Origin: Brockia lithotrophica
Lineage (GTDB): Bacteria; Bacillota; Bacilli; Thermicanales; DSM-22653
Reading direction: 5' to 3'
Length of the DNA stretch: 64,000 nucleotides
NCBI GenBank assembly: GCA_003050565.1
Contig: PEBW01000002.1
Coordinates: forward strand, 186,001-250,000
How positions within the stretch are numbered: position 1 is the stretch's first letter; every line of letters starts with the position of its first letter. A program made the translations under genes and the position numbers. Shown one piece after another: positions 321 to 36,008 of the stretch. Below the pieces are notes generated by a model. It had not been told where the DNA came from, did not search any database, and saw nothing but the letters and a program-made list of their open reading frames with translations.

Positions 321-3300
321 ACTGGACGCCGGAACAAGAACTCGCCATCTCCTGGCGGCGCGGACCCCTCCTCGTCTCGGCTTCGGCGGGGAGCGGCAAG
401 ACGGCGGTGCTCGTGGCCCGCGTCATGCGCCTCGTCCTCGAGGAGGGGGTCGATATCGACCGCCTCCTCATCGTCACCTTCACGCGTGCGGCGGCCGAGG
501 AGATGAAGGCGAGGATCCGCCGCGCCCTCGAAGAACGCCTGCGGGAAGCTTCGGGCGGAAAAAGCCGCGAGGCGCAGCGCCTGCGCCGCCAGATCTTCCT
601 CCTGGGGCGAGCCCCCATCCAGACGCTCCACGCCTACCTCGCCGACCTCCTCCGGCGCCACGGACAGAAGATCGGCCTTAGCCCGCGCTTCTCCTTGCTC
701 GACGACGCCGAGGCGCAGCTCCTCCAAGAAGACGTGCTCCGCACCTACCTCCACGAAACCGTGGAACGCTTCCTCCGGGAGGACCCGGAGGCCGCGCGGG
801 CATTTCTGTCGCGCTACGGGCACCCCGTGCACCACCTCGGCGACCTCGAGAAGGTGATCCTCACCCTCGTACGCTTCGCCCGCGTAACCCCCGACCCGCA
901 GAAGTGGTTCGAGGACGTCCTCCTCCCCTACCGCGCCGCCCGCTCACCCTCGACCCCTTCGCAAGGCGTCGAGGAAGCGCTCGGGCGCTGGCAGGAGGGC
1001 GCCCTCCTCGAAGCGCGGGCGATGGTCGCCAACGCGGTGCGCGACCTCGAGGAAGCCATCGCCCTGGCCCAAGAACCGGGAGGGCCGCGGGCATACCTCG
1101 AACAACTCCAAGCCGAAAGGGACGCCCTCGCCTCCCTCGCCGAGGAAAGGGAATGGGAACCCTTTGCCCGGGGGCTGCGGGAACTTTCCTTCGGGCGTCT
1201 TCCGGCAATCCGCAGGGGGAAAACCGGCGACGAGGTCGACGAGGAACTTCAAGAAGCCGTCAAGAAGCGCAGGGAGAGGGTCAAGAAGATCGTCAGGGAT
1301 GGCCTTCAGAAGAGCTACTTCGCCCGGCCGTACGCGGAAGTGCGCGATGCCGTGGTCCGCGTCGCTCCCGACGTCGAGCGCCTCGTGGAGTGGGCCCGGA
1401 GCTTTCTCGAGGCGTACGAAAAGCGCAAGCGCGCGCTCGGCGTACTGGACTTCGAAGACTTGGAGCAGCTGTCCTTGGAGCTTCTCGGGCGGGACGGCGG
1501 CCAGTTGGTGCGGGAACTGCAGTCCACCCTCGAGGGAGTGCTCGTCGACGAGGCACAGGACCTCAACCCCGTACAAATGGCGCTCTTGGAAAAGATCGCC
1601 CCCCCGGAGAAGCTCTTCTTCGTAGGCGACGTAAAGCAGAGCATCTACGGCTTCCGACTCGCCGAACCGCGCCTCTTCCTCGAGCTCTACGAGAGCTACA
1701 CCCCCCTGAAGATTCCGGAGGCGAAGGATTCCCCGTCGCCCCTCCCCCTCGATCCCGAAAGAGGGGGAACTCCCGAGAGCCCGGACGCGGCGCCGACCGG
1801 CTTATCGGGGTGGGAAACGACTCCCGGGGGATCGGAGAAAGCCCGCGGGGGATTCCGCGTCGACCTCCCCCACAACTTCCGAAGCACTCCCGAACTCCTG
1901 GACGGCGTGAACCGCCTCATGGGCGCCCTCATGGAAAGGGAGATCGGGGGCATCGACTACCACGAGGGGCACCGCCTGAAGCCCGCGCCCCACGCCGTAT
2001 CCCAAAACCGGCCCGGGATCTACGTGTACTTCGCCGACCTGCGGGACCTGGCGGCGGACGCCCGCGGCGCGGAAGGGGACGAGCCCCCCATCCGCGATCC
2101 CGTCCTCCGCGACTTCTACGACCTGCTCGAAGGCCGCGGCAGAAGCTCCCCGGAAGCCCAGAGCGGCGGGGTTCCCTCCGGAGCGGAAGGCGGAGACGAC
2201 CCCGGAGGATCCGCGTTCGGCGAAGGAGAAGCGCCCGAACCGACCGAGCCGACGAACGAAGCCGATTCCGCCGCCCTCGTGGAATACCTCCGGGCCGAGG
2301 GGGAAGCCCGGGTGATCGCCCGCGCCATCGCCGAAGAAGACCTCGCGCCGCAGGATACGGCGGTCCTCCTCCGGAGCCGCACGTGGCTCTCCGTCTACGT
2401 GCGCGAGCTCGAGAGTCTGGGCGTCCCCGTTCGCGCGGTGACGCGCGGGAGCCTCTTCGACGACCCGGACGTCCAGACCTTCCTCAACGTCCTGCGCGTC
2501 GTGGACAACCCCGCGCGGGACGTCCCGCTCGTGGGCGTCCTCTCCTCCCCGGTCGTGGGCCTGTCGGCCGAGGAGCTGGCCGCCGTGCGCATCGCCTATC
2601 CCGACCTCCCCTACTGGGAGGCCGTCTTCCGCCTCGCCGAGGCAGGACGCGCCGACGCGGGGAAAAACTCGGGCGCGGGCGAAGCCCTCGCCAAGGCGCA
2701 ATCCCGCCTGCGGGATTTCGCCCGAGCCCTCGCACACTGGCGCGACCTCGCCCGCGACCTCTCCACGGCGGAACTTGCCGAACGCCTCCTGCGCGAGCTC
2801 GGGTTCGACCTCTGGGGAGCCGCCCTCCCGTCGGGGCGTACCTTGGAAGCGCGCCTTCGCCGCCTCGTCGATTGGTTCCGCCGGAGCGAGCGAAGGGGAA
2901 AGCGCCCCCTCGGCGAACTTCTCGAAGAGCTGGACACGCTCGCGGAACGGGACCTCTTCGAAGACGGGGAGGAGACGGCGGCCGAAGACGAAGGACAGGC
3001 CGTCCGCATCCTCACAATCCACCAGAGCAAAGGGCTCGAGTTTCCCGTGGTCTTTCTCGCGGGGCTGGGACAGCCGTTTTACCAAAACGACGCCGCCGAG
3101 GACGTCATCCTCCACCGGGACATCGGCGTCGCCCTGCGCGAAATCGACGCGGAGCGGCACATGAGCTACCCGACGCTCCCGTGGCTCTTCGCCAGCTCGC
3201 GCCTGAAGCGCGACCGCCTCGCAGAAGAACTCCGCCTTCTCTACGTCGCGCTCACGCGCGCCCGGGAAAAACTCTTCCTCCCCTTCGTCGAACGCGACCT

Positions 3301-4747
3301 CGGCAAGAGGATCGGCCGCGCGCGCCAGGCCTTTCCCCTCGCCTCGGGCTTTCGGGACGCGGCGAACGCCTCCCCCGCGGAGTCGAAAGAACGCGTCGCC
3401 CTCTCCACGCCGGAAAAGCTCCGCGCCCGCTCCTTTGCCGACCTCCTCTTCCCCGTCCTCTACCTCGAGGCGCGCGCCCGCGGCGCCGCCGAAGACTTCG
3501 AACGCCTCCTCTCGGACGACCGGACGCGGCGGGAGCTGTCCTTGTCTCCGTTCCTCCTGCGCGTGGTAGGACCGATTCGGTTGGAGGAGCAAGTCTTTCC
3601 GGAAAGGGCCGCGCCTGCCGAAGACGTGCCCGCCGGCCAAAAACCGCCGGAAAGGCCCGAACCATCCGACGGTGTCCCCGAGGCGCAAATGCCTCCGGAA
3701 GGGGCCGAGCTTGGCGACGAGGACAGAACCGCGGTTCAAGAAGTCCTCGCGCGCGTCCTCCCCCTGGAGGCGAGCGCCCTCGCCTCGTATCCCTGGGCCC
3801 CCTTCACCAACATCCCCTCCAAACTCAGCGTCACGGAAATCCGCGAGCGCACGGAGGCGTTCGCCCTCGCCGAAGACATTTCCCTCGCCGCCGCACCGTG
3901 GGCGGCGCCGGAGTCCGAAACCGGAGCCCGAACGACCCCGGAGCGCAAAGCCGATTCGGGCCGTGGTGTCGCTTGCGGTGCGGCGGGAGACGCGTTCGCC
4001 CGCGAACCCTTGGGCGCGGCGGACGTCGCGAGCGTCGAAGAAAGCCTCCGGCGGGGCACGGCGGTCCACACCTTCCTTCGCTTCGTAGACGTGAAGCGCG
4101 CGGCAGACGAAGAAGCGCTCGTCCGGGAGCTCGACCGCCTCGTGGAAGAGGGGTACCTCGAACCCGAAGACCGGGCCCTCATCCCCCTTGGGCGGATCCG
4201 GGAGTTCTTCCTCCACCCCCTCGGTCGGCGCCTGCGCAAAGCGCAAAGCGTCTACCGGGAACGGCCGTTCCTCTGGAGCCTTCCGGCCGAAGTCGCCGCC
4301 GCGCTCCTGAAAGGGGGGGCGGCGCTTGGGACGCAAGGCCCTTCTCCTGCCGAAACGCCCCCCTCGGCGGGGATCGCCCGCGCAAACCCGGCGCTTCCCA
4401 CCCACGACCTCCAAAAATTTTGCGCGTGGGTGGACGACGCCCGCGCGAAATCCCGGGCCGCCGACACCCGCGCGCAGCCGCAAGCCCCCGACGCGGTGGT
4501 CGTGCAGGGCATCTTCGACGTCCTCTTCCAAGAAAGCGAAGGGTACGTCCTCCTCGACTACAAGACGGACCGAATCCTCGACCCGCGGATCTACACCGCC
4601 CAGCTCTTTGTGTACGCCTGCGCGGTGCGCGACCTCCTCGGCGAGCTCCCGCGCGAAGGATGGCTGTACGCCTTCGGGGAAGAGCTCGCCGGTAAGGGAC
4701 GCTTTGCCGACGGCGGGCGCGTAGACCGCGCCGTCCGGATCTTTTGA
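317..4747 (+). CDS. addA: ATP-dependent helicase/nuclease subunit A
   Basis: UvrD-like superfamily 1 helicase with a C-terminal RecB-type nuclease, which with AddB resects double-strand ends and loads RecA. Visible motifs: Walker A SASAGSGKT near residue 25, DEAQD near 410, helicase motifs around TIHQSKGLEFPV and LLYVALTRAREK, and the nuclease block GIFDVLF followed by LLDYKTD near 1415. The ATG overlaps the addB stop (ATGA). At 1476 aa it is roughly 240 aa longer than the usual protein. The extra length sits in three Pro/Gly/Glu/Asp-rich linkers (about residues 470-515, 605-655 and 1090-1140) between, not inside, the conserved motifs, so activity is probably kept. Confidence 0.97.
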   Translation: MNWTPEQELAISWRRGPLLVSASAGSGKTAVLVARVMRLVLEEGVDIDRLLIVTFTRAAAEEMKARIRRALEERLREASGGKSREAQRLRRQIFLLGRAPIQTLHAYLADLLRRHGQKIGLSPRFSLLDDAEAQLLQEDVLRTYLHETVERFLREDPEAARAFLSRYGHPVHHLGDLEKVILTLVRFARVTPDPQKWFEDVLLPYRAARSPSTPSQGVEEALGRWQEGALLEARAMVANAVRDLEEAIALAQEPGGPRAYLEQLQAERDALASLAEEREWEPFARGLRELSFGRLPAIRRGKTGDEVDEELQEAVKKRRERVKKIVRDGLQKSYFARPYAEVRDAVVRVAPDVERLVEWARSFLEAYEKRKRALGVLDFEDLEQLSLELLGRDGGQLVRELQSTLEGVLVDEAQDLNPVQMALLEKIAPPEKLFFVGDVKQSIYGFRLAEPRLFLELYESYTPLKIPEAKDSPSPLPLDPERGGTPESPDAAPTGLSGWETTPGGSEKARGGFRVDLPHNFRSTPELLDGVNRLMGALMEREIGGIDYHEGHRLKPAPHAVSQNRPGIYVYFADLRDLAADARGAEGDEPPIRDPVLRDFYDLLEGRGRSSPEAQSGGVPSGAEGGDDPGGSAFGEGEAPEPTEPTNEADSAALVEYLRAEGEARVIARAIAEEDLAPQDTAVLLRSRTWLSVYVRELESLGVPVRAVTRGSLFDDPDVQTFLNVLRVVDNPARDVPLVGVLSSPVVGLSAEELAAVRIAYPDLPYWEAVFRLAEAGRADAGKNSGAGEALAKAQSRLRDFARALAHWRDLARDLSTAELAERLLRELGFDLWGAALPSGRTLEARLRRLVDWFRRSERRGKRPLGELLEELDTLAERDLFEDGEETAAEDEGQAVRILTIHQSKGLEFPVVFLAGLGQPFYQNDAAEDVILHRDIGVALREIDAERHMSYPTLPWLFASSRLKRDRLAEELRLLYVALTRAREKLFLPFVERDLGKRIGRARQAFPLASGFRDAANASPAESKERVALSTPEKLRARSFADLLFPVLYLEARARGAAEDFERLLSDDRTRRELSLSPFLLRVVGPIRLEEQVFPERAAPAEDVPAGQKPPERPEPSDGVPEAQMPPEGAELGDEDRTAVQEVLARVLPLEASALASYPWAPFTNIPSKLSVTEIRERTEAFALAEDISLAAAPWAAPESETGARTTPERKADSGRGVACGAAGDAFAREPLGAADVASVEESLRRGTAVHTFLRFVDVKRAADEEALVRELDRLVEEGYLEPEDRALIPLGRIREFFLHPLGRRLRKAQSVYRERPFLWSLPAEVAAALLKGGAALGTQGPSPAETPPSAGIARANPALPTHDLQKFCAWVDDARAKSRAADTRAQPQAPDAVVVQGIFDVLFQESEGYVLLDYKTDRILDPRIYTAQLFVYACAVRDLLGELPREGWLYAFGEELAGKGRFADGGRVDRAVRIF

Positions 4748-27071: not shown

Positions 27072-27105
27072 ATTCCGAAAGTGGCCGAATCGGCCTCTTC
27101 GGAAT
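27072..27105. repeat. Hairpin at the likely right end of the IS200/IS605 element
   Basis: ATTCCGAA (27072-27079) and TTCGGAAT (27098-27105) form an outer stem, and GGCC/GGCC an inner one. It lies 22 bp past the tnpA stop. IS200/IS605 elements carry subterminal imperfect hairpins recognised by TnpA, so this is the expected right-end site. It could instead belong to the ymxH leader. Confidence 0.5.
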
Positions 27106-27127
27106 GGGTACGCGTGTACACGGGGGA

Positions 27128-27574
27128 TTAGACCGAGCGAAAGCCTTTGGCGCGCCCTCGCCGTTTTTTTCTTTCTTTTTCCCTTTGCCCTTCGATGTAC
27201 CGGCGAACCGTCTCGGCGGAAACTCTCCCTGCCGACGAAACATAGTAGGACGGAGCCCAAAGTCTCCCACGACCGGTTCGCCTCTGAAGGTCCGGAAACT
27301 CCAAAAGCAGCTTGCGGGCGCTCACTCCCTTAAACGTCTTTGCGACCTCTGCCGGGCGAACCGTCGGAGGAACGGAAACAAAGAGATGTACGTGGTCCGG
27401 CATAACCTCCACGGCAACGATTTCCCACCCGCGATTTTTTACCGTCTCCCTCAGAATTTCTTTGAGACGGTTGGCGAGCGGTCCGTTCAGAACGGCTCGG
27501 CGGTATTTAGGAATCCAAACCATGTGGTTTAGAACTAGATATTTTGAATGCCTACTAGACTTTATGTCTACCAT
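27128..27574 (-). CDS. tnpA: IS200/IS605-family transposase TnpA (Y1 HUH)
   Basis: A 148-aa single-strand transposase. The HUH motif is HVH at residues 61-63 in MPDHVHLFVSV, and the catalytic tyrosine is Tyr126 in ETVRRYIEGQ. Basic residues fill the C-terminus. All key residues are present, so it may be active. A small hairpin (TAGAC/GTCTA, 27556-27570) overlaps codons 2-7, as in IS200 elements where such structure limits translation. No tnpB/IscB-type gene accompanies it. Confidence 0.93.
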   Translation of the reverse strand: MVDIKSSRHSKYLVLNHMVWIPKYRRAVLNGPLANRLKEILRETVKNRGWEIVAVEVMPDHVHLFVSVPPTVRPAEVAKTFKGVSARKLLLEFPDLQRRTGRGRLWAPSYYVSSAGRVSAETVRRYIEGQREKERKKRRGRAKGFRSV

Positions 27575-27754
27575 AATTATAACGTCGCCTAGAACTTTTT
27601 TTAACTTTTTTTTAACTTCATATTATGTTAACACTAATATTAATATTTATATTTAACCACAACCGGCTTCATCCACGGAATAAATTCCAGGGTTTTCTCC
27701 GGTGTGTTCTGTAATGCTCCTCAAGGTAGGACAGAATATTAAGTCACAGATTAT

Positions 27755-28320
27755 CTGTATCCGGATAAAGCTCTCCCAAAATAATAAGGACACTTGAGCT
27801 TGAACCGTCCTTTCCCCACCTCTTCTTCTCCTTCGTGTTTGTAAATAAATCACGGTTGGTACCTTTTGCCGCCCTGACCGGCTACGTGGTCTTCGTCCGC
27901 TTCTGCGTAAAGAACCCTTACCCGACGCTTCTCTTCGGGAGGAAGGGGCAGTTCTTCAGGAGAGAATTCGTGCACTACACCTTCTTCACGGCCTCGCCTC
28001 TCAGTACCCCTTCCTGGTTACCTTTCCCTACTCTCTCCACTCTCCTGGTAGGAAAGCTCTGCTGCTTCTTCTAAGACCTGTGCCTTAACCAGAAGGTCAA
28101 CCCGCGTATTCGGCTCGTAACCTACCAGCCAGTCTACCAAGTGAGCGCGCTCCCCGGTATCTTTGTGCCGGTAATAGGTCCATTTGTAGCTGATTGTAGC
28201 TCACCAGATCGAAGTGGTTAGGTTGTTAACTGCTCGTACATTCAAAGGACGGCGAGGTATCTTCTTCTTTCTCTCACTCCCCTCGGCTTCTGCAAAAAAC
28301 TCCTACAGTAACTTTACGCT
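27755..28320 (-). pseudogene. Decayed ISLre2-family (UPF0236) transposase
   Basis: Reading the minus strand in one frame gives RRPLNVRAVNNLTTSIW, a stop, ATISYKWTYYRHKDTGERAH, LVDWLVGYEPNTRVDLLVKA, QVLEEAAELSYQESG, a stop, then VRVLYAEADEDHVAGQGG, a stop, and FIYKHEGEEEVGKGRFKLKC before further stops. The YYRxKxTGE, LGxEPxxRVxxxVKAxxxExAxELSYxxSG and LYxEADEDHVxxQ blocks are those of UPF0236/ISLre2 transposases. The N-terminus and the C-terminal half are missing. The AT-rich stretch 27575-27754 beside it holds nothing I recognise. Confidence 0.85.
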
Positions 28321-28335
28321 AACAGATTTAAGCAG

Positions 28336-28381
28336 TGTCGTCGACCTCCAGGGGTTTTTGCACTACCGAAGGTCGACGACA
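28336..28381. repeat. Solitary 46-bp palindrome next to cas4, possible orphan CRISPR repeat
   Basis: TGTCGTCGACCT (28336-28347) and AGGTCGACGACA (28370-28381) are perfectly complementary 12-bp arms around a 22-nt centre containing GGGGTTTTTGCAC. The element begins 3 bp after the restored cas4 stop codon. It has the size and dyad of a structured CRISPR repeat, but only one copy exists here, and typical type I-B repeats (ending ATTGAAAC) look different. It lacks a T tract, so it is not a normal intrinsic terminator. Confidence 0.5.
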
Positions 28382-28384
28382 TTT

Positions 28385-28878
28385 TCACGCCCAGCAAAAT
28401 TCGGCGTAGGCGCACCAACCGAAAAAGCGAGTGCGCACCGGGGCAGGAGGAATCGGGCGAGCTATGATCTGGACTATATCTTCATCTTCCTTCATCTTGG
28501 CTACTTTTGCTTCCAGCTCCGGCGTCAGCAATAGATACTCCTTTCTCTCTCTTCCCCTTCGGCCTCTAGGCCCATCTGCTTGAGTTCGTAAAGGTAAAAG
28601 GCCTGTTGCATCCAGGCTGCTTCGGCGCGGGAGCTCTTTTTCACCTCGGCCACCACGAAGTTTTTGCCCGCGCGGCGGACGAGATCCAGGGCCAGGTGCT
28701 CAATGTGCACCTCTTTGCGTTCGCGGGCGTAGCTCCGGCTTTGAATGAGCCGCCCGATCTGCAAAAGCTCGTGGTCTTCGTCCGGGCAGATCTGGCGGGA
28801 CATGAGCCAGACCTGCTGGGGGCAGATGAGGAAGGCCTGGACGTAGCTCCCAATGACCTTCGGAGAGGAAGAGATCAT
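28385..28878 (-). pseudogene. cas4: cas4, frameshifted in an AG repeat
   Basis: The first frame (MISSSPKVIGSYVQAFLICP, later FVVAEVKKSSRAEAAWMQQA) is the RecB-like Cas4 nuclease with its E-V-K active-site segment. It runs into a stop at about 28525. The C-terminus continues in another frame: LLTPELEAKVAKMKEDEDIV, then FGWCAYAEFC, carrying the last cysteines of the Fe-S cluster. The shift falls within a GAGAGAGA run near 28540; the whole region is 494 bp, 3n+2. Restored, Cas4 would be about 164 aa, the normal size. It starts inside the end of cas3 (4-bp overlap). It may be a null allele, a phase-variable one, or a sequencing slip. Confidence 0.85.
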
Positions 28879-31328
28879 ATTATCATCGCCCCCTCGTCTA
28901 CCCGCTTGAAGCCCGTTTCCGGATCGTAAAGCTTTTCCACCAGGTAGGGGGGTATATAGGGCAGAGCTTTGGAAGTGTCTACTTTGTCGGCCAGGGATCT
29001 AACAGGAACTGAGATGATGTAGCGGCTGAAGTCACGCTTGATCCGGTAAAAGGCTTCCCAGCGCGAGCGGCGGTCGGGCGCGTTTACCACTTCCTGCTGG
29101 TAGGTTTCCCATACTTCCTCGGCTTTGGAGTCAAGGGCCACGAAGACCTCAATGTGGTTGGGCAGATCTTTTATGAGCTGAAAGCCCGCCACGCCTTTCT
29201 CTTCCCCGTCCCCCTTGAACCGCAATTCCTTCATGGCTTTCAAAATTGTGTCACTTGCGCTCGGATCTTTTCTGGCCCTGACAAAGGAGAAAAAGTTCTC
29301 CACCAGCGAGTGGAATTCCGCTTCCGGGAACTCCGGACGGCCGGAGAAAAACTCCCGGGCGCCCTTTATGTGAATGGCCCCGTAGACGCGGACGGCCAGA
29401 GAGTGGCCTTGTTCGTCTACCAAGTTGAGAAGGTAAACGTCCCCCTTATCTTTTTTATTTAAGTTGCGGTTGCAGCGCCCCGCCACCTGAACTACCGCAT
29501 CTACAGGCCCTATGTCCCGCCAGGCCACGTCGAAGTCCAGGTCCACTCCCGCTTCCACCACCTGGGTGGAAACGAGAACCGGCTTCTCTCCCCGCCGCAG
29601 GGCCGTGCGCAGAGCTTCTATCCGCCTCTCCCGCTCGGCCGGCACGATGTTGGTGGAAAGGTAGTAAAGAGGGGTTCCCTCCGGCAAGAGCTCTTTCAGG
29701 TAGTGGTAGAAGTCTACGGAGCTCCGGATGGTGTTCAGCACCACCAGGTGCGATTGGCTGGGATCATAGCTCCGGGCGAAAAGCTCGGCCGCTTCTGCCA
29801 CGCGGTACTGTCCGGGTTCGACCAGCAGGCGGACGCGGTCAAGCATCTTGAAGTAGCGCTCGATATCCTCCGGCTCTCCCGCCAGCTCCAGGGCTTCTTC
29901 CGGCTCGAACCACTCCGGGCGTGTAGCCGTCATGAGGATGAGGCGCAGATCAAGCTCCTCCGCCGCCCGCTTTAAGACTTCGGTGACCAGGGGCCAGTAT
30001 TCCACGGGTATATTCTGTACTTCGTCCATGATGATAATGGCCCGGCCCAGGTGGCAGAACTTTTTGAGCATCCGATTGCGGTAGCCGATGAGGGTGTGAA
30101 GGAGTTGTACGAAGGTGGTGACCACCACTTCGCTTTGCCAGCTCTCGATGAGGAGCATGGCTTCGTCGAAGCTGCGGGGATCTTCGTCCTCCGGATCCTT
30201 ATAGGATATTTCCGCCAGGTGATGATGCTTGAGCAGGTAAACCGAAGGAGCGGAAACAAAACCGGGCAAGGTCTCCTTCATGAGTTCGTAGAGAACCTGA
30301 TAGGTCTGGTCGATGATGCTGGTGAAAGGAAGGGCGTAGATAATGCGAGGAGAGAAGCCGATAGCCTCCTTTAGGCGCTGGCGCAAGATGAGAGCGGTGT
30401 TGAGTACGGTGAGGGTCTTACCGCTGCCAGTAGGAGCGGTAAGGGTAAAAAAGCGCTGGGAAAGAGGGGCACGGGCTATTCTTTCGGCGGCGCGGCGAAA
30501 GATTTCTTCTCGTAAAGCGTTGATCCCTTCAGGATTGCCCCCGGCAAATTTCCTTTCTTTATAGGTGTAGACCAGATTAGAGGGAAGTTCTGGTCTCTTA
30601 ACTTCGCGCACGCGGGCGCTGTGCCGCTTGTCGGCATCGATAAGGGCGGAGAAGAGGAGGACCACGTTGAAATAAGGAGAAAGGGAAGGTTCCTGCCTTT
30701 CAAACTTGCGCCAGTGCCGGTAGAGGGAAAGATAGACCTCCCGCCAGGAGCCAAGAAACTCTTCTAAGCACCGGCGCCAGTCCTGCGTCAGAAAAGGAGG
30801 GGAAGCAAAGCCGCGCCGCGCAAGAAGGCGGGCGAGGTGCCGGGCAGCAGAAATAAGAGAGGTCCCCACCTTCTCTACGTTTCGCCGGAGATCTTCCACT
30901 TGCTTCTCCACTACCTCCAGGCGCCGGTACTTGTCGGGGTCAAGACGGGATATGTCTTCCATTTCGCGGCGCGACGCCAGGTAGCGGTCGAGATTGTCCA
31001 GATCCCGGTGGTGCCATAGCACGGCCATGAAAGCCGCCAGTTGTTCCAGGGGCTCCGTCCCCTGCCGGGCGGCAAGGTAGGTAGCCCAGAGGCCGGATAT
31101 AAAAGCGTGCTCTTTGTAAGGATTGACTTCGCCGCTCAAAAGGTAGTCTTGAAAGTAAGAGGTGTACTTGCCGAAATCGTGGGCTAGGCCCACGGTGGCG
31201 GCCAGAGGCAGGAGCTTTTGGTAGCGGGGAAGCCGGGCCAAAGAGGTGTAGCTTGCGGCCGCCACCAGGGCCAGGTGGGCGTCTAGGCGATAGAGGCGTT
31301 CTCCTTCGCGGTGGGCGAAGAAGGCCAT
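28875..31328 (-). CDS. cas3: CRISPR-associated nuclease-helicase Cas3
   Basis: An 817-aa fusion of an N-terminal HD nuclease and a superfamily 2 helicase, which shreds DNA after Cascade binding. HD residues: GLAHDFGKY near 50, EHAFISGLWATYL, and VLWHHRDLDN. Helicase: LTAPTGSGKTLT near 300, IIMDEVQNIP, STQVVEAGVDLDF and VVQVAGRCNRN. All are intact and the frame is open, so target destruction could still occur if a Cascade and crRNA are supplied. Confidence 0.95.
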   Translation of the reverse strand: MAFFAHREGERLYRLDAHLALVAAASYTSLARLPRYQKLLPLAATVGLAHDFGKYTSYFQDYLLSGEVNPYKEHAFISGLWATYLAARQGTEPLEQLAAFMAVLWHHRDLDNLDRYLASRREMEDISRLDPDKYRRLEVVEKQVEDLRRNVEKVGTSLISAARHLARLLARRGFASPPFLTQDWRRCLEEFLGSWREVYLSLYRHWRKFERQEPSLSPYFNVVLLFSALIDADKRHSARVREVKRPELPSNLVYTYKERKFAGGNPEGINALREEIFRRAAERIARAPLSQRFFTLTAPTGSGKTLTVLNTALILRQRLKEAIGFSPRIIYALPFTSIIDQTYQVLYELMKETLPGFVSAPSVYLLKHHHLAEISYKDPEDEDPRSFDEAMLLIESWQSEVVVTTFVQLLHTLIGYRNRMLKKFCHLGRAIIIMDEVQNIPVEYWPLVTEVLKRAAEELDLRLILMTATRPEWFEPEEALELAGEPEDIERYFKMLDRVRLLVEPGQYRVAEAAELFARSYDPSQSHLVVLNTIRSSVDFYHYLKELLPEGTPLYYLSTNIVPAERERRIEALRTALRRGEKPVLVSTQVVEAGVDLDFDVAWRDIGPVDAVVQVAGRCNRNLNKKDKGDVYLLNLVDEQGHSLAVRVYGAIHIKGAREFFSGRPEFPEAEFHSLVENFFSFVRARKDPSASDTILKAMKELRFKGDGEEKGVAGFQLIKDLPNHIEVFVALDSKAEEVWETYQQEVVNAPDRRSRWEAFYRIKRDFSRYIISVPVRSLADKVDTSKALPYIPPYLVEKLYDPETGFKRVDEGAMII

Positions 31329-32086
31329 AACTCTCCCTCCATAAAGGCCACCGTTTCCTTTCCGGAAGGAAGATCGAAAGAGTAGGCGGGGACCAGAAGC
31401 TCCGCCCGCCAGGGGCGGGCTTGCATTTCGTAGATGTAACTCATAGGCGGCATGAGCTTTCGCCCTGCCCCAAAGGACTGGGGTGCCCGCTCCCGGTTAA
31501 GGGCCACTTCCCCTTTAAGCACGGGCCGCCAGAGGTAGTCAGCCGCCAGCACCGAATGGAGTTCTACTTCTTGACCGGCAGGGATTATTTCGTCCGGCGG
31601 TTTAAAGTCAACCAAGCGGGCTTGAGCGATGAATTCGGTCAGCCCCAGGTAAAGGGGGTAGTGAGATCGGCCGGCGGCCAGCCTCTCCTTAAGCTCCCGG
31701 GTCACGCTTTCGTCGCGGTGAGCGAAGTACACTCGGAAGCAAAGGGAGGAGGCCGTACCGCCGGGCAGAAGGAGCTCCAGAGGCACCTGGGTACCCTTCA
31801 TGGCCTCCAGCTTTCTTAACCGGTTGAGGTCTTCTTCTTTGGTGCGGATGTAGTTCACGGTCTGGATGAGGCGCCGGACCGGGACTTTGATTACCACCGC
31901 GAAGCGAGCTTCATTAGGCCCCAGCTTCTCGTAGTAGCTATCACGCTCCCAGCCCAAAATGGCAGCCACTGTCCCCATAAGCACTGTGCGGGGCGGGAAG
32001 GCGTAAGAAAGCGAAGAAGAGTTGGTGTAGTATTTGCGGAAGTGGGCGAAAGGGCCGACCAGATCAAAGACGGCCGTATTGACCAC
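31283..32086 (-). CDS. cas5: Cascade subunit Cas5 (type I-B)
   Basis: A 267-aa RAMP protein that caps the crRNA 5' handle in Cascade. The N-terminus TAVFDLVGPFAHFRKYYTNS and SYAFPPRTVLMGTVAAILG are the Cas5 signature of the Cas5b/Cas5h branch. A C-terminal YSFDLPSGKETVAF strand completes the domain. GTG start; the end overlaps the cas3 start by 46 bp, so the two are coupled. Confidence 0.93.
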   Translation of the reverse strand: MVNTAVFDLVGPFAHFRKYYTNSSSLSYAFPPRTVLMGTVAAILGWERDSYYEKLGPNEARFAVVIKVPVRRLIQTVNYIRTKEEDLNRLRKLEAMKGTQVPLELLLPGGTASSLCFRVYFAHRDESVTRELKERLAAGRSHYPLYLGLTEFIAQARLVDFKPPDEIIPAGQEVELHSVLAADYLWRPVLKGEVALNRERAPQSFGAGRKLMPPMSYIYEMQARPWRAELLVPAYSFDLPSGKETVAFMEGELWPSSPTAKENASIA

Positions 32087-32092
32087 GGCTTT

Positions 32093-33097
32093 TTACTCCC
32101 TTCCTAGAGGTATGACCCGCTCCGAACCCAGAAGTTCTGCCAGCCACTCCCCGCAGTTCTTGGGAGAGCCGTTGACCTGAGTAGTGAGCTCCCGATCCTG
32201 CCACCAGAAGACCCGGTTGATACGAGTCTTGACCTTAAGAATCCGGTCTTTGAGTCCCCCGATTTCCAGCTTGACGTCTTGAATGGAACGCAGATCGGTA
32301 TCGGGCTCCAGGCGCAAGTCTTCCCGCATGTCCCCCATGAAGGTGTAGGCATCGGTGAACTCGAAGCGCAGGTAAAGGCGGGGGTACTGGCCGATCTTGG
32401 AGCGGGTAGCCAGGAGGGGTATGGCCTCGAGCATGGCCTGATCGAGAAGTTCTAGATCGCGCTCGCTGGTGGCTCCGGCCGGGTTTTCATTCGCCAGCTT
32501 ATACATAACCGCCGCCCTACGGGCGCTGATAATACCGTGGAAGGCGATGAAGGAGTAGTAGAGCCGGTAGTCCTTGCCGAAAGTGCCTTGGCGGGCGTCG
32601 GCTTCGGAAGCAAACTGAGAGGAAAGGGTGTTGGACTCTACCAGCTGCACGCGGTTGAGAGAATAGCCCCAGTTGAACTGCACCGGACCGGTGAGGTTAA
32701 TGGCCTCTCCTTCGCCCCGCCGATCGCCCTTTACCGGCATGGTAGCTCCGAAAAGGCGAACATCAACGAGTTTTTGCAACAAGGTGGGTAAATGTTCCCT
32801 CGTCGGCTGCTCTTTTTCCCCCAGGCCCAGAAGGCGTTTGAGCCTTTCGGTGGCATTAACCACCCCTTCTGCCTTGGTTACGTAAATGGTCTGTTCGCCG
32901 CCTTTTTCCTGGAAGTAGTCGTAGAGGTAGTCGCGGATGTAGCGCTTGAGCCTCACGTCGGAGACCAAGTTGCGTTCCCGGTCGAGATCCATCCGCGGAC
33001 GGTTTTCGTCGTCGGGATCACCGTTGGGATTGCACATCTTGGCGTCGTAAAGGTAAAGAATTTCCCCGTTTTTCTCGATGAGCTTAATGTCGGCCAT
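32093..33097 (-). CDS. cas7: Cascade backbone subunit Cas7 (Csh2 type)
   Basis: The 334-aa RAMP backbone protein that coats the crRNA spacer. LYLYDAKMCNPNGDPDDENR near residue 20 is the Csh2 hallmark; INLTGPVQFNWGYSLNRVQL and the AFHGIISARRAA segment follow. ATG 33097 begins one base after the cas8b stop. It was chosen over a TTG four codons upstream that sits on the ribosome-binding site. The frame is fully open. Confidence 0.94.
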   Translation of the reverse strand: MADIKLIEKNGEILYLYDAKMCNPNGDPDDENRPRMDLDRERNLVSDVRLKRYIRDYLYDYFQEKGGEQTIYVTKAEGVVNATERLKRLLGLGEKEQPTREHLPTLLQKLVDVRLFGATMPVKGDRRGEGEAINLTGPVQFNWGYSLNRVQLVESNTLSSQFASEADARQGTFGKDYRLYYSFIAFHGIISARRAAVMYKLANENPAGATSERDLELLDQAMLEAIPLLATRSKIGQYPRLYLRFEFTDAYTFMGDMREDLRLEPDTDLRSIQDVKLEIGGLKDRILKVKTRINRVFWWQDRELTTQVNGSPKNCGEWLAELLGSERVIPLGRE

Positions 33098-33098
33098 A

Positions 33099-35099
33099 TT
33101 ACTGCTCAACCTCCTTTTCTTTCTTCAGAACCGTTGTCCTGGTGCCGTAAGCGTAGCCGGAGAGAATGTAGAAGACGTTTTCTTCCGGGCCTAAAGGCCA
33201 TTTGCTGTCACGGTAGCGGTCGAGAAGTCTTTTCATTTCGGCGTAGAGAACTTCGTTTTGCCCCCGGAGGCGGTCGTACTGCCTTAACTTTTCAAAAAGT
33301 TGATTGGCCAAGCTAAGCACTCGGCTCCAGTTCATGCCTTGGTAGTTGATCTTGTCCAGCACCGGTTTGCTCTGGTGTCCGGAAGAGTACTGGCCCTTTC
33401 CCACCTCGTTTAGCAGGTAGCCCAGGAGGAAAAGGGCCGCCTGCGGCTCGGAGTAGTTCATGGACTTTAGGTATTCGCGCATTTCCTGATTGACCATAAG
33501 CTCCTGGCTCGGCTCAAAGCCCGGCAAATCTTTCACCCCCTTAAGAATTCCTTCTTCGCGCAGAAGCTTGAGCAAGAAGCCGGCGTGCAAAAGTTTGGTG
33601 GCCAGAGCCCGCTCTTCCTGTCCGGAGTTAGGCTTGCGCTGATTGGTGCCTTCAAAGCGGCCGGAGAGGTAAAGGTGGGCCAGTTCCAGAAACTCCTTCA
33701 CAAGGAAGGAGTACTCGATGGGTTCGCCGCGCAGCAAACCCTGGTAGAGGTAAAGGAGTTTCTTGTGCTCGGCCCTATCCCGCTCCCGCAAGGGCAGAAG
33801 GTAGTAAAGGCGGGTAAGGTCGATCCACCAATCCTTTACTTCCCCTCCCAGGAGGCGCCTGCCTTCCTGGGCCAGCAGGTTTGAACGGCGGTAGAGCCGG
33901 GAAAGTCGGCTGGGAGCCACATCTTTTATCAGGCCCAAAATGCGGAACTCGCTTTGCGTTTTCTGGTAAAAAAGGAAGTTGAGTAGCGCCTGGTCTTCTA
34001 TCCCTTCCTCTTCGAAAAGCTCTTCCAGGAAGCGCTCAAGCTCTTCCTCAAATTTCCTCTCGCCTTCAAGCCCCTGCTTTAGACCCGGAAAGTAGGTAAA
34101 GGCCTGGGTTTTGCGGGTAAGCTTATTCATAAGCCGGGAAAACTCCTGCCGCCAGGCGGGAGAATCGGAGAAAAGGATAAAGGTGGGAAGAAGAAGGAAG
34201 TTAAGGGTACCCACCCGCAAATTCAGGTTCTGGGGTAGGTAGTTTTCCACTACCAGAAAAGAGCGGAAGCATTCCTCGCAGATGAGGAAGTTGCGGATAA
34301 AGCCCGATTCGCTGACCCCGGAAGCGAAGCCCACTTTATCGGTGATGTAGGGCTTGAAAAACTTCAAGCGCTTGAAGGCCACAGCGCTTACTTTTTCTTT
34401 TTCCTTCCCGCAGACCAGGCAGATGCCCGGCACCAAGTCTTCTCCCTCAAAGCCGGCCAGGCGGTAGCGCAAGATCACCTGGTCGTAGGGCTCGGCCTGT
34501 ACCAGCGGCTCGCCGTTAAAAAGCAAAGTCCAAAGGCCCACCTGCTTCTTTTTGATTCCCAGCTCTTGTTCCACCCGCTTGACCAGGACATCCGCCACCT
34601 GCTTGGCCCGCTCCTTGGCCTCCTTTTTGGCCTGCTTCTTGGCCTCCTTCTTCCCTTGCTTGTTCTTCTCTTTTTCTGCCTTTTCTTCCCCGCCCTCGAG
34701 GCGGGAAAAGGCCTTATCGTAGATTATCTTGAGCTTCCGGGCCAGCTCTGAATCTTCTTCCCCCTGGCTCGATAGCTCCTGAAGTAGATTAGGGATAACC
34801 TGTCCGGTTAGGTAGTGCAGAGTGTCGGTGGTGAGAAACTTCTGGGGGTTGCTGCCGGAAGCGTTGCCCACGTGCCGCCAGCGGGTAAGAAATTCCCGCT
34901 GCTTTTCTTTATCTCTCGGTATTTCCTCAAAGTCGAAGCAAAGCCGCAACTTCCCTGGCTCTTCCTCCCGAAAGTCAAGCTTGACTAGGTAAAATCCTTC
35001 TTCCGGACCTTTCGGAATGTTTTTTAAATCCTCGATTATTCCTGCGATTAAGTCCCCGCCGCCTACCGTCTTCCCCAGCAGCTCTATGGCTTCCAGCAA
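33099..35099 (-). CDS. cas8b: Cascade large subunit Cas8b (Csh1 type)
   Basis: A 666-aa type I-B large subunit, which normally recognises the PAM. It has the family's zinc-binding pair: CLVCGKEKEK around residue 223 and FLICEECFRSF about 55 residues later. A TTG start follows GGAGGGAAGAGAA. An unusual Lys/Glu/Ala-rich stretch at about residues 137-175 (KKEAKKQAKKEAKERAKQ) forms a highly charged helix not typical of the family. Otherwise it is intact. Confidence 0.88.
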   Translation of the reverse strand: MLEAIELLGKTVGGGDLIAGIIEDLKNIPKGPEEGFYLVKLDFREEEPGKLRLCFDFEEIPRDKEKQREFLTRWRHVGNASGSNPQKFLTTDTLHYLTGQVIPNLLQELSSQGEEDSELARKLKIIYDKAFSRLEGGEEKAEKEKNKQGKKEAKKQAKKEAKERAKQVADVLVKRVEQELGIKKKQVGLWTLLFNGEPLVQAEPYDQVILRYRLAGFEGEDLVPGICLVCGKEKEKVSAVAFKRLKFFKPYITDKVGFASGVSESGFIRNFLICEECFRSFLVVENYLPQNLNLRVGTLNFLLLPTFILFSDSPAWRQEFSRLMNKLTRKTQAFTYFPGLKQGLEGERKFEEELERFLEELFEEEGIEDQALLNFLFYQKTQSEFRILGLIKDVAPSRLSRLYRRSNLLAQEGRRLLGGEVKDWWIDLTRLYYLLPLRERDRAEHKKLLYLYQGLLRGEPIEYSFLVKEFLELAHLYLSGRFEGTNQRKPNSGQEERALATKLLHAGFLLKLLREEGILKGVKDLPGFEPSQELMVNQEMREYLKSMNYSEPQAALFLLGYLLNEVGKGQYSSGHQSKPVLDKINYQGMNWSRVLSLANQLFEKLRQYDRLRGQNEVLYAEMKRLLDRYRDSKWPLGPEENVFYILSGYAYGTRTTVLKKEKEVEQ

Positions 35100-35112
35100 T
35101 TCTCTTCCCTCC

Positions 35113-35433
35113 TCAATCTTCCTCCTCTACCAATTCACAGCACCCGAACCCCTGCGAGTTTTTGGCCCCCAGGCCCGCGCTAAGCGCCACCTCCAGCAAC
35201 TGCGGATCGCCGGTGAGCCGGTACTTACCCATCCACCCCTTGATGACTGTGCCTTTGTAGCGGACCACCTTGAAGTCTCGCTCCCGCACCTCCACCGGAG
35301 TGAAGCTGAAGCCGGTCGGGCCCGCTGGCTGCCCGAAAAAAAGCTGATCTTTTTTGACTAAGTTCTCTTTGATGAGCCCGGGAAAACAGGGCTCAAAAGA
35401 CGAGTCACTCTCATGCTGGAGACATTTTAGCAT
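35113..35433 (-). pseudogene. cas6: cas6, C-terminal fragment only
   Basis: The last 106 codons of a Cas6 crRNA endonuclease: RERDFKVVRYKGTVIKGWMG, YRLTGDPQLLEVAL and the glycine-rich SAGLGAKNSQGFGCCEL, which closes all Cas6 proteins. A complete Cas6 is about 230-260 aa; the N-terminal RAMP fold with the catalytic region is absent. Upstream sequence runs without homology into the end of dut. Its stop precedes cas8b by 13 bp, as first gene of the operon. Without another Cas6, crRNA maturation would fail. Confidence 0.85.
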
Positions 35434-35443
35434 GTTCTCTACT

Positions 35444-35463
35444 TTCGCGCAATAGAGCGCGAA
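35444..35463. repeat. Small hairpin at the cas6 break
   Basis: TTCGCGC and GCGCGAA pair around AATAGA just upstream of the cas6 fragment, near the island-chromosome junction. It has a short A tract on the + side (T tract on the minus strand, but upstream of the stem), so it is unlikely to terminate dut. Confidence 0.45.
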
Positions 35464-35555
35464 GAAAAAAACTTCGGGGAAAGGGAGACGTGTGCCCGTT
35501 TGGTAGCACGCCCCCCATTCTCGATCCTCGCGTGTATCCGAATTTGGATTTTTAT

Positions 35556-36008
35556 TTAAGATCGAATACCCGTAGATCCGAAACCTCCCTCCCCTCGCTC
35601 GGTGGCCGGAAGTTCCTCCACGAGGCGAAGTTCGGGGCGGAGTACGGGCACAAAGAGCATCTGGGCGATGCGGTCGCCGTCGCGGATCGTCACGGGTTCG
35701 TGGGGGTCGAGGTTCACGGCGATGAGCTTGATCTCGCCGCGGTAGTCCCCGTCGATCACGCCGGCGGCGTTTGCCAGGCTCAGGCCGAGGCGAAGCGCGG
35801 TCCCGCTCCGCGGGAGGACGAGGAGTGCCACGTCCGGTCCGGGAAGGGCGACCGCAAGGCCCGTGGGGATGAGCGCGCGTTCCCCCGGGCGCAAGACGAC
35901 GTCGCGGTTGAGGCAGGCGGCGAGGTCGTAGCCCGCCGCCCCCGGCGTCGCGGGGTACGGGATGCGCGGGGGTTTGTGGGGACAAAGCCAGCGCACGTGC
36001 ACTTCCAC
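35556..36008 (-). CDS. dut: dUTP diphosphatase
   Basis: Trimeric dUTPase hydrolysing dUTP to dUMP, supplying thymidylate synthesis and keeping uracil out of DNA. All five motifs are present in 150 aa: PGAAGYDLAA, LPRSGTALRLGLSLAN, GVIDGDYRGEIK, GDRIAQMLF and the C-terminal RGEGGFGSTG loop. It ends next to the cas island. Directly upstream is mlpA with the same orientation and a 3-bp gap. Confidence 0.96.
   Translation of the reverse strand: MEVHVRWLCPHKPPRIPYPATPGAAGYDLAACLNRDVVLRPGERALIPTGLAVALPGPDVALLVLPRSGTALRLGLSLANAAGVIDGDYRGEIKLIAVNLDPHEPVTIRDGDRIAQMLFVPVLRPELRLVEELPATERGEGGFGSTGIRS

What the first reader, a model, noticed from the sequence alone, without database searches (positions are those of the whole stretch)
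27072..35433. Type I-B CRISPR-Cas operon that keeps interference genes but lacks adaptation and crRNA processing
cas8b, cas7, cas5 and cas3 are open with intact motifs. cas6 has lost its N-terminal half, cas4 is frameshifted, cas1 and cas2 are absent and there is no array. The open effector genes could mean recent damage, or that the complex borrows Cas6 and arrays from elsewhere in the genome.
Basis: partly seen in the sequence, partly recalled or inferred. Interest (0 to 1): 0.7.

Follow-up and report, generated by a model that had tools for sequence, protein, structure and literature searches.

The report
Acquired, decaying type I-B CRISPR operon
A heat-loving bacterium carries a second-hand CRISPR immune operon, nearly identical to one in Ammonifex thiophilus, whose cutting genes are still intact but whose guide-RNA processing and memory-making genes are broken or missing, while a compatible guide array survives elsewhere in the same genome.

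Summary
The operon is real: cas6' (C-terminal part only), cas8b, cas7, cas5, cas3, frameshifted cas4, all on the minus strand, in a 56% GC island inside 68% GC DNA. It is horizontally acquired: window 28320-35405 is 94% identical to an intact operon of Ammonifex thiophilus, and the same-genus genome lacks it. (1) Missing cas1-cas2 is not damage here: the Ammonifex operon, with intact cas6, cas4 and a long array, also lacks them. (2) The lineage-specific damage is loss of the cas6 5' part, a 16-bp deletion plus loss of an iron-sulphur cysteine in cas4, and loss of the array by a break inside the leader. (3) There is an array: 45 repeats lie 217 kb away on the same contig. Its leader is 94% identical to that of a different I-B locus in a family relative, and its repeat matches the Ammonifex repeat at 28 of 30 positions. 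No Cas1 or second Cas6 is in the assembly, but the contig ends inside that array, where synteny would place cas6-cas4-cas1. Effector genes still look constrained. Most likely a recently disabled acquired operon; a hybrid that borrows the native array is not excluded.

The parts
35113..35405 (-). cas6 remnant: C-terminal domain only (about 95 of 249 residues); the 5' part and the upstream operon start are gone
   Evidence: PF01881 profile 37-125; DNA homology to the intact Ammonifex gene ends at 35405; intact Ammonifex cas6 is 249 aa
33099..35099 (-). cas8b (TM1802/Csh1 type), open, 666 aa
   Evidence: PF09484 E 3e-144, TIGR02556, TIGR02591; N:S not clearly raised outside the linker
32093..33109 (-). 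cas7 (Csh2), open, 338 aa
   Evidence: TIGR02590 E 2e-58; 96% identical to Ammonifex
31283..32086 (-). cas5b, open, 267 aa
   Evidence: TIGR02592 E 6e-28
28875..31328 (-). cas3 (HD nuclease and helicase), open, 817 aa; AHD, TGSGKT, DEVQ, TAT and AGRCNR motifs read in the translation
   Evidence: TIGR01587, TIGR01596; PADLOC Cas3b E 7e-200; translation
28385..28878 (-). cas4 pseudogene: 16-bp deletion (frameshift) and RFCGKC to RFFGWC at the first cluster cysteine
   Evidence: Alignment to the intact Ammonifex gene and partial Caldatribacterium genes
28337..28380 (-). 44-bp palindrome of the lost CRISPR leader
   Evidence: 0 expected in shuffles; same element 98-146 bp before the first repeat of other arrays
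27854..28182 (-). decayed ISLre2-type (UPF0236) transposase pieces where the array should be
   Evidence: PF06782 E 4.6e-5 and 1.2e-3, both below the curated cut-off but colinear
27128..27574 (-). IS200/IS605 tnpA, open; its 3' end is shared with the same-genus site
   Evidence: PF01797, NF033573; homology to G001 ends at 27240
28320..35405 (-). Segment 94% identical to Ammonifex thiophilus (7135 aligned columns), GC 56%
35556..36008 (-). dut, the host gene that flanks the island; conserved at 88% DNA identity in the same-genus genome, where the island is absent

Best explanation
A type I-B effector operon of the Ammonifex kind, already without cas1-cas2 and dependent on adaptation proteins supplied in trans, was acquired horizontally and landed between dut and an IS200/IS605 remnant. 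During or after that event it lost its promoter-proximal end with most of cas6, its array (break in the leader next to ISLre2 remnants) and a working cas4. With no working Cas6 it cannot make its own crRNAs, so as it stands it is most likely a recently disabled immune operon. Cas8b, Cas7, Cas5 and Cas3 would still form a surveillance and nuclease complex if given crRNAs. Shown: anatomy, transfer, the breaks, pre-transfer loss of cas1-cas2, a compatible array in trans. Inferred: non-function, order of events, and that selection ended only recently.
For: 94% DNA identity to Ammonifex over 28320-35405, GC 56% against 68%, and the site without island in the same-genus genome. Intact Ammonifex cas6, cas4 and array with no cas1-cas2 between cas4 and leader, whereas most other relatives have cas4-cas1-cas2-leader. 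Cas4 and cas6 damage. Only the truncated Cas6 in the genome. In Haloferax type I-B, deleting cas6 abolishes crRNAs and interference (PMC3945376). On the window branch the dead genes carry 11 nonsynonymous to 2 synonymous changes against 37 to 63 in cas3/5/7 (Fisher p 0.0018).
Against: Cas3/5/7 show almost no relaxation (fraction of branch neutral 0.055, 95% 0-0.14), which also fits continued use. A compatible array with 44 of 45 perfect repeats exists in trans. The contrast between dead and live genes rests on 13 changes and has p = 0.07 under a model that pools synonymous rates.
Confidence: 0.62

Rival explanations
1. Hybrid system still in use: the acquired Cas8b-Cas7-Cas5-Cas3 complex takes crRNAs from the native array 217 kb away, processed by a native Cas6 that lies in the unassembled stretch beyond the array.
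For: Repeat 28/30 identical to the Ammonifex repeat with the same 3' ATTGAAAC. The array's leader is 93.6% identical to that of a family relative's I-B locus whose next genes are cas6-cas4-cas1; in G004 the order is cas3-leader-array-cas6-cas4-cas1. The contig breaks exactly there. Effector genes look constrained.
Against: No second Cas6 or any Cas1 in an assembly estimated 97% complete. The cas3 side of the native locus is already gone, so the rest may be too.
Confidence: 0.25
2. Effector-only complex with Cas6-independent crRNAs: another RNase cuts array transcripts, or the Cas6 C-terminal fragment contributes.
For: In Haloferax I-B, crRNAs made without Cas6 from tRNA-like constructs support interference (PMC4946936, PMC7064716).
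Against: Those constructs were engineered. The window Cas6 lacks the N-terminal domain, where, from general knowledge, the catalytic Tyr/His/Lys of archaeal Cas6 lie (solved relatives aligned). The fragment evolves at 8N:1S.
Confidence: 0.06
3. Assembly error: the cas6 truncation or missing array is an artefact.
For: Single draft assembly in 12 contigs; arrays and IS elements break assemblies.
Against: Both breaks lie inside a long contig with unrelated sequence on each side; cas4 carries independent point and deletion damage.
Confidence: 0.05

Closest known systems
Type I-B operon of Ammonifex thiophilus SR (NZ_QSLN01000004)
   Same: 94% identical DNA over cas6' to leader, same gene order, no cas1-cas2 between cas4 and leader
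   Different: Ammonifex has full-length cas6 and cas4, an upstream WYL-like regulator gene (read from the translation, not tested), and about 43 repeats directly after the leader
Adaptation-less provirus type I-B systems of haloarchaea (PMC12596717)
   Same: I-B effector module without cas1 and cas2, possibly relying on another system for adaptation
   Different: Those keep Cas6 (its structure is compared there); here cas6 is truncated and cas4 is a pseudogene rather than absent
Family-relative I-B loci G003:C125 and G004:C6
   Same: Near-identical repeats; the leader of the orphan array here is 93.6% identical to that of G003:C125
   Different: Different effector proteins (no Cas8b match in G004); Cas6 about 52% identical to the Ammonifex one

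Membership tests
Type I-B CRISPR-Cas | Cas8b large subunit | tested here: met
   PF09484, TIGR02556, TIGR02591
Type I-B CRISPR-Cas | Cas7 (Csh2) and Cas5b | tested here: met
   TIGR02590, TIGR02592 above cut-off
Type I-B CRISPR-Cas | Cas3 with HD and helicase domains | tested here: met
   TIGR01587, TIGR01596 above cut-off
Type I-B CRISPR-Cas | Intact Cas6 processing nuclease | tested here: not met
   Only the C-terminal domain remains; none elsewhere in the assembly. So this is a remnant of a I-B system, not a complete one
Type I-B CRISPR-Cas | Adaptation module Cas1-Cas2-Cas4 | tested here: not met
   No Cas1 in genome; cas4 frameshifted; Cas2 was not searched genome-wide
Type I-B CRISPR-Cas | Leader and array | tested here: inconclusive
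   Leader remnant only at the operon; a compatible array 217 kb away
Type I-B CRISPR-Cas | crRNA production and DNA interference | not testable with these tools
   Needs RNA sequencing and a plasmid interference assay

The most novel reading that the evidence does not exclude
A natural hybrid immune system: a horizontally acquired effector complex that has shed its own processing and memory parts and runs on the host's native array and Cas6, replacing the lost native effector genes.
Probability: 0.2. Interest if true: 0.6.

Novelty: new member of a known kind. Interest (0 to 1): 0.38.

Why it matters
It shows which parts of a type I system are lost after transfer and in what order: cas1-cas2 before transfer, then array, cas6 and cas4, effectors last. 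It also gives a clean test of whether effector complexes can be swapped onto a host's resident array when repeats match. The recurring I-B operons without cas1-cas2 but with a leader and array, and the conserved 44-bp leader palindrome, may interest specialists more than this locus itself.

Tried and rejected
Phage targets of the array: no match in the phage collection and no exact 24-25 nt match for four spacers in IMG/VR. Self or island targets among fetched sequence: only 15-16 nt chance matches. Rfam identity of the palindrome: none above gathering score. Literature on the palindrome: none found in the open library. Plasmid carriage: only distant Cas8b on Thermus and Runella plasmids, under 36% identity. 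Raised nonsynonymous count in cas8b: concentrated in a poorly aligned Lys-rich linker (columns 138-166), so not taken as relaxation. Synteny across the contig gap was attempted through the same-genus genome but is scrambled there.

Full report
Observation. Reading the minus strand from 36 kb down, the window holds dut, then a remnant of cas6, then cas8b, cas7, cas5, cas3 and a broken cas4. Family searches confirm every gene and place it in subtype I-B. The block is 56% GC in a 68% GC neighbourhood.

Origin. The best relative in a collection of 84,980 species genomes is Ammonifex thiophilus (Cas7 96%); Candidatus Caldatribacterium follows at 85-87%. Window 28320-35405 aligns to the Ammonifex locus at 94% DNA identity in one piece. 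The one same-genus genome has no Cas8b, and at the homologous dut site it has only IS605-type remnants. So the operon is a horizontal acquisition. Which intermediate carried it is unknown.

What was lost, and when. In Ammonifex the order is cas6 (249 aa), cas8b, cas7, cas5, cas3, cas4 (168 aa), a 44-bp palindrome, leader, and about 43 repeats. There is no cas1 or cas2 between cas4 and leader there. In most other relatives with the palindrome cas1 stands exactly there, with room for cas2 (cas2 read directly in one of them, L103), so cas4-cas1-cas2-palindrome. A second group lacks cas4 as well and goes from cas3 to the palindrome. Thus cas1-cas2 were absent before the transfer. Specific to this genome are: the cas6 truncation at 35405; the cas4 16-bp deletion and loss of a cluster cysteine; and the break in the leader at 28320 with loss of the array, next to decayed UPF0236 (ISLre2-type) pieces and an IS200 tnpA.

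The array elsewhere. A repeat-motif search of the whole genome found one array, at the start of the same contig: 45 repeats GTTCGCAGCCTACCTATGAGGGATTGAAAC, 44 of them perfect. Arrays with unrelated repeats were not searched for. The Ammonifex repeat is GTTTGTAGCCTACCTATGAGGGATTGAAAC. The last eight bases, which form the 5' handle of a mature type I-B crRNA (general knowledge), are the same. The array's leader is 93.6% identical over 283 bp to the leader in G003:C125, where it lies between cas3 and cas6. In G004 the order is cas3-leader-array-cas6-cas4-cas1. The array here is therefore the remnant of a host-family I-B locus whose cas3 side is gone, and whose other side falls off the contig.

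Other Cas proteins. No Cas1, no second Cas6 by two families, and no RAMP-superfamily (PF03787) protein were found in the assembly. The assembly is 97% complete in 12 contigs; one 2.5-kb contig reads as N. Absence of Cas6 is therefore likely but not proven, because synteny would place it right at the contig break.

Selection. Changes were polarised with Caldatribacterium as outgroup. On the window branch cas3, cas5 and cas7 together have 37 nonsynonymous and 63 synonymous changes, like the Ammonifex branch (30 and 61). The cas6 fragment and cas4 have 11 and 2. Fisher's test gives p = 0.0018; a Poisson model with pooled synonymous rate gives p = 0.07, so the contrast is suggestive. About 4% of random substitutions in the effector genes would make stops. 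With 166 window-branch changes in the four genes, some 6 stops would be expected without any constraint, and none is seen. The cas8b excess sits in its Lys-rich linker.

Mechanism. In Haloferax type I-B, Cas6 is required for crRNAs and interference (PMC3945376), although crRNAs made by other enzymes from engineered transcripts can be used (PMC4946936, PMC7064716). From this and the anatomy, the operon as assembled most likely makes proteins that cannot be loaded. A native Cas6 in the gap would turn it into a hybrid system.

Side result. The 44-bp palindrome GTCGTCGA-N28-TCGACGAC is nearly always 44 bp long and, where a downstream array could be measured, mostly 98-146 bp upstream of the first repeat, across Clostridia and Bacilli. 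Its 13-bp stem pairs in 92% of cells with some compensatory changes. It matches no Rfam family at threshold, and no description was found in the open literature held.

Noticed in passing
window 28337-28380; L010 3884-3927; about 30 loci listed: A 44-bp inverted repeat of fixed length with an A-rich loop sits about 100-150 bp upstream of the first CRISPR repeat in many Firmicutes I-B leaders; no Rfam family or open paper describing it was found.
   Followed up: partly
L044, L055, L056, L057, L060, L064: I-B operons without cas1-cas2 (some also without cas4) but with the leader palindrome, several followed by a CRISPR array, recur; adaptation would have to come from elsewhere.
   Followed up: partly
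L010 1119-1936 (contig C2): Between two perfect repeats of the orphan array lies an 818-bp insert with a small ribbon-helix-helix-like ORF (56 aa, weak match) and a 118-aa ORF of no known family.
   Followed up: partly
L010 about 2963-3000 and 3694-3731: The leader-proximal spacer is identical to spacer 12 of the same array.
   Followed up: no
G001 loci L156, L157, L158: The same-genus genome carries other CRISPR loci: a cas6-cas4-cas1 locus with a GTACCAATCG-type repeat, a broken cas1 locus, and an array with an E. coli-like repeat next to a weak Cas1 match.
   Followed up: no
window 35430-35560: The unmatched 150 bp between dut and the cas6 remnant fold into a stable hairpin (z -3.9), possibly a terminator or IS end.
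   Followed up: no
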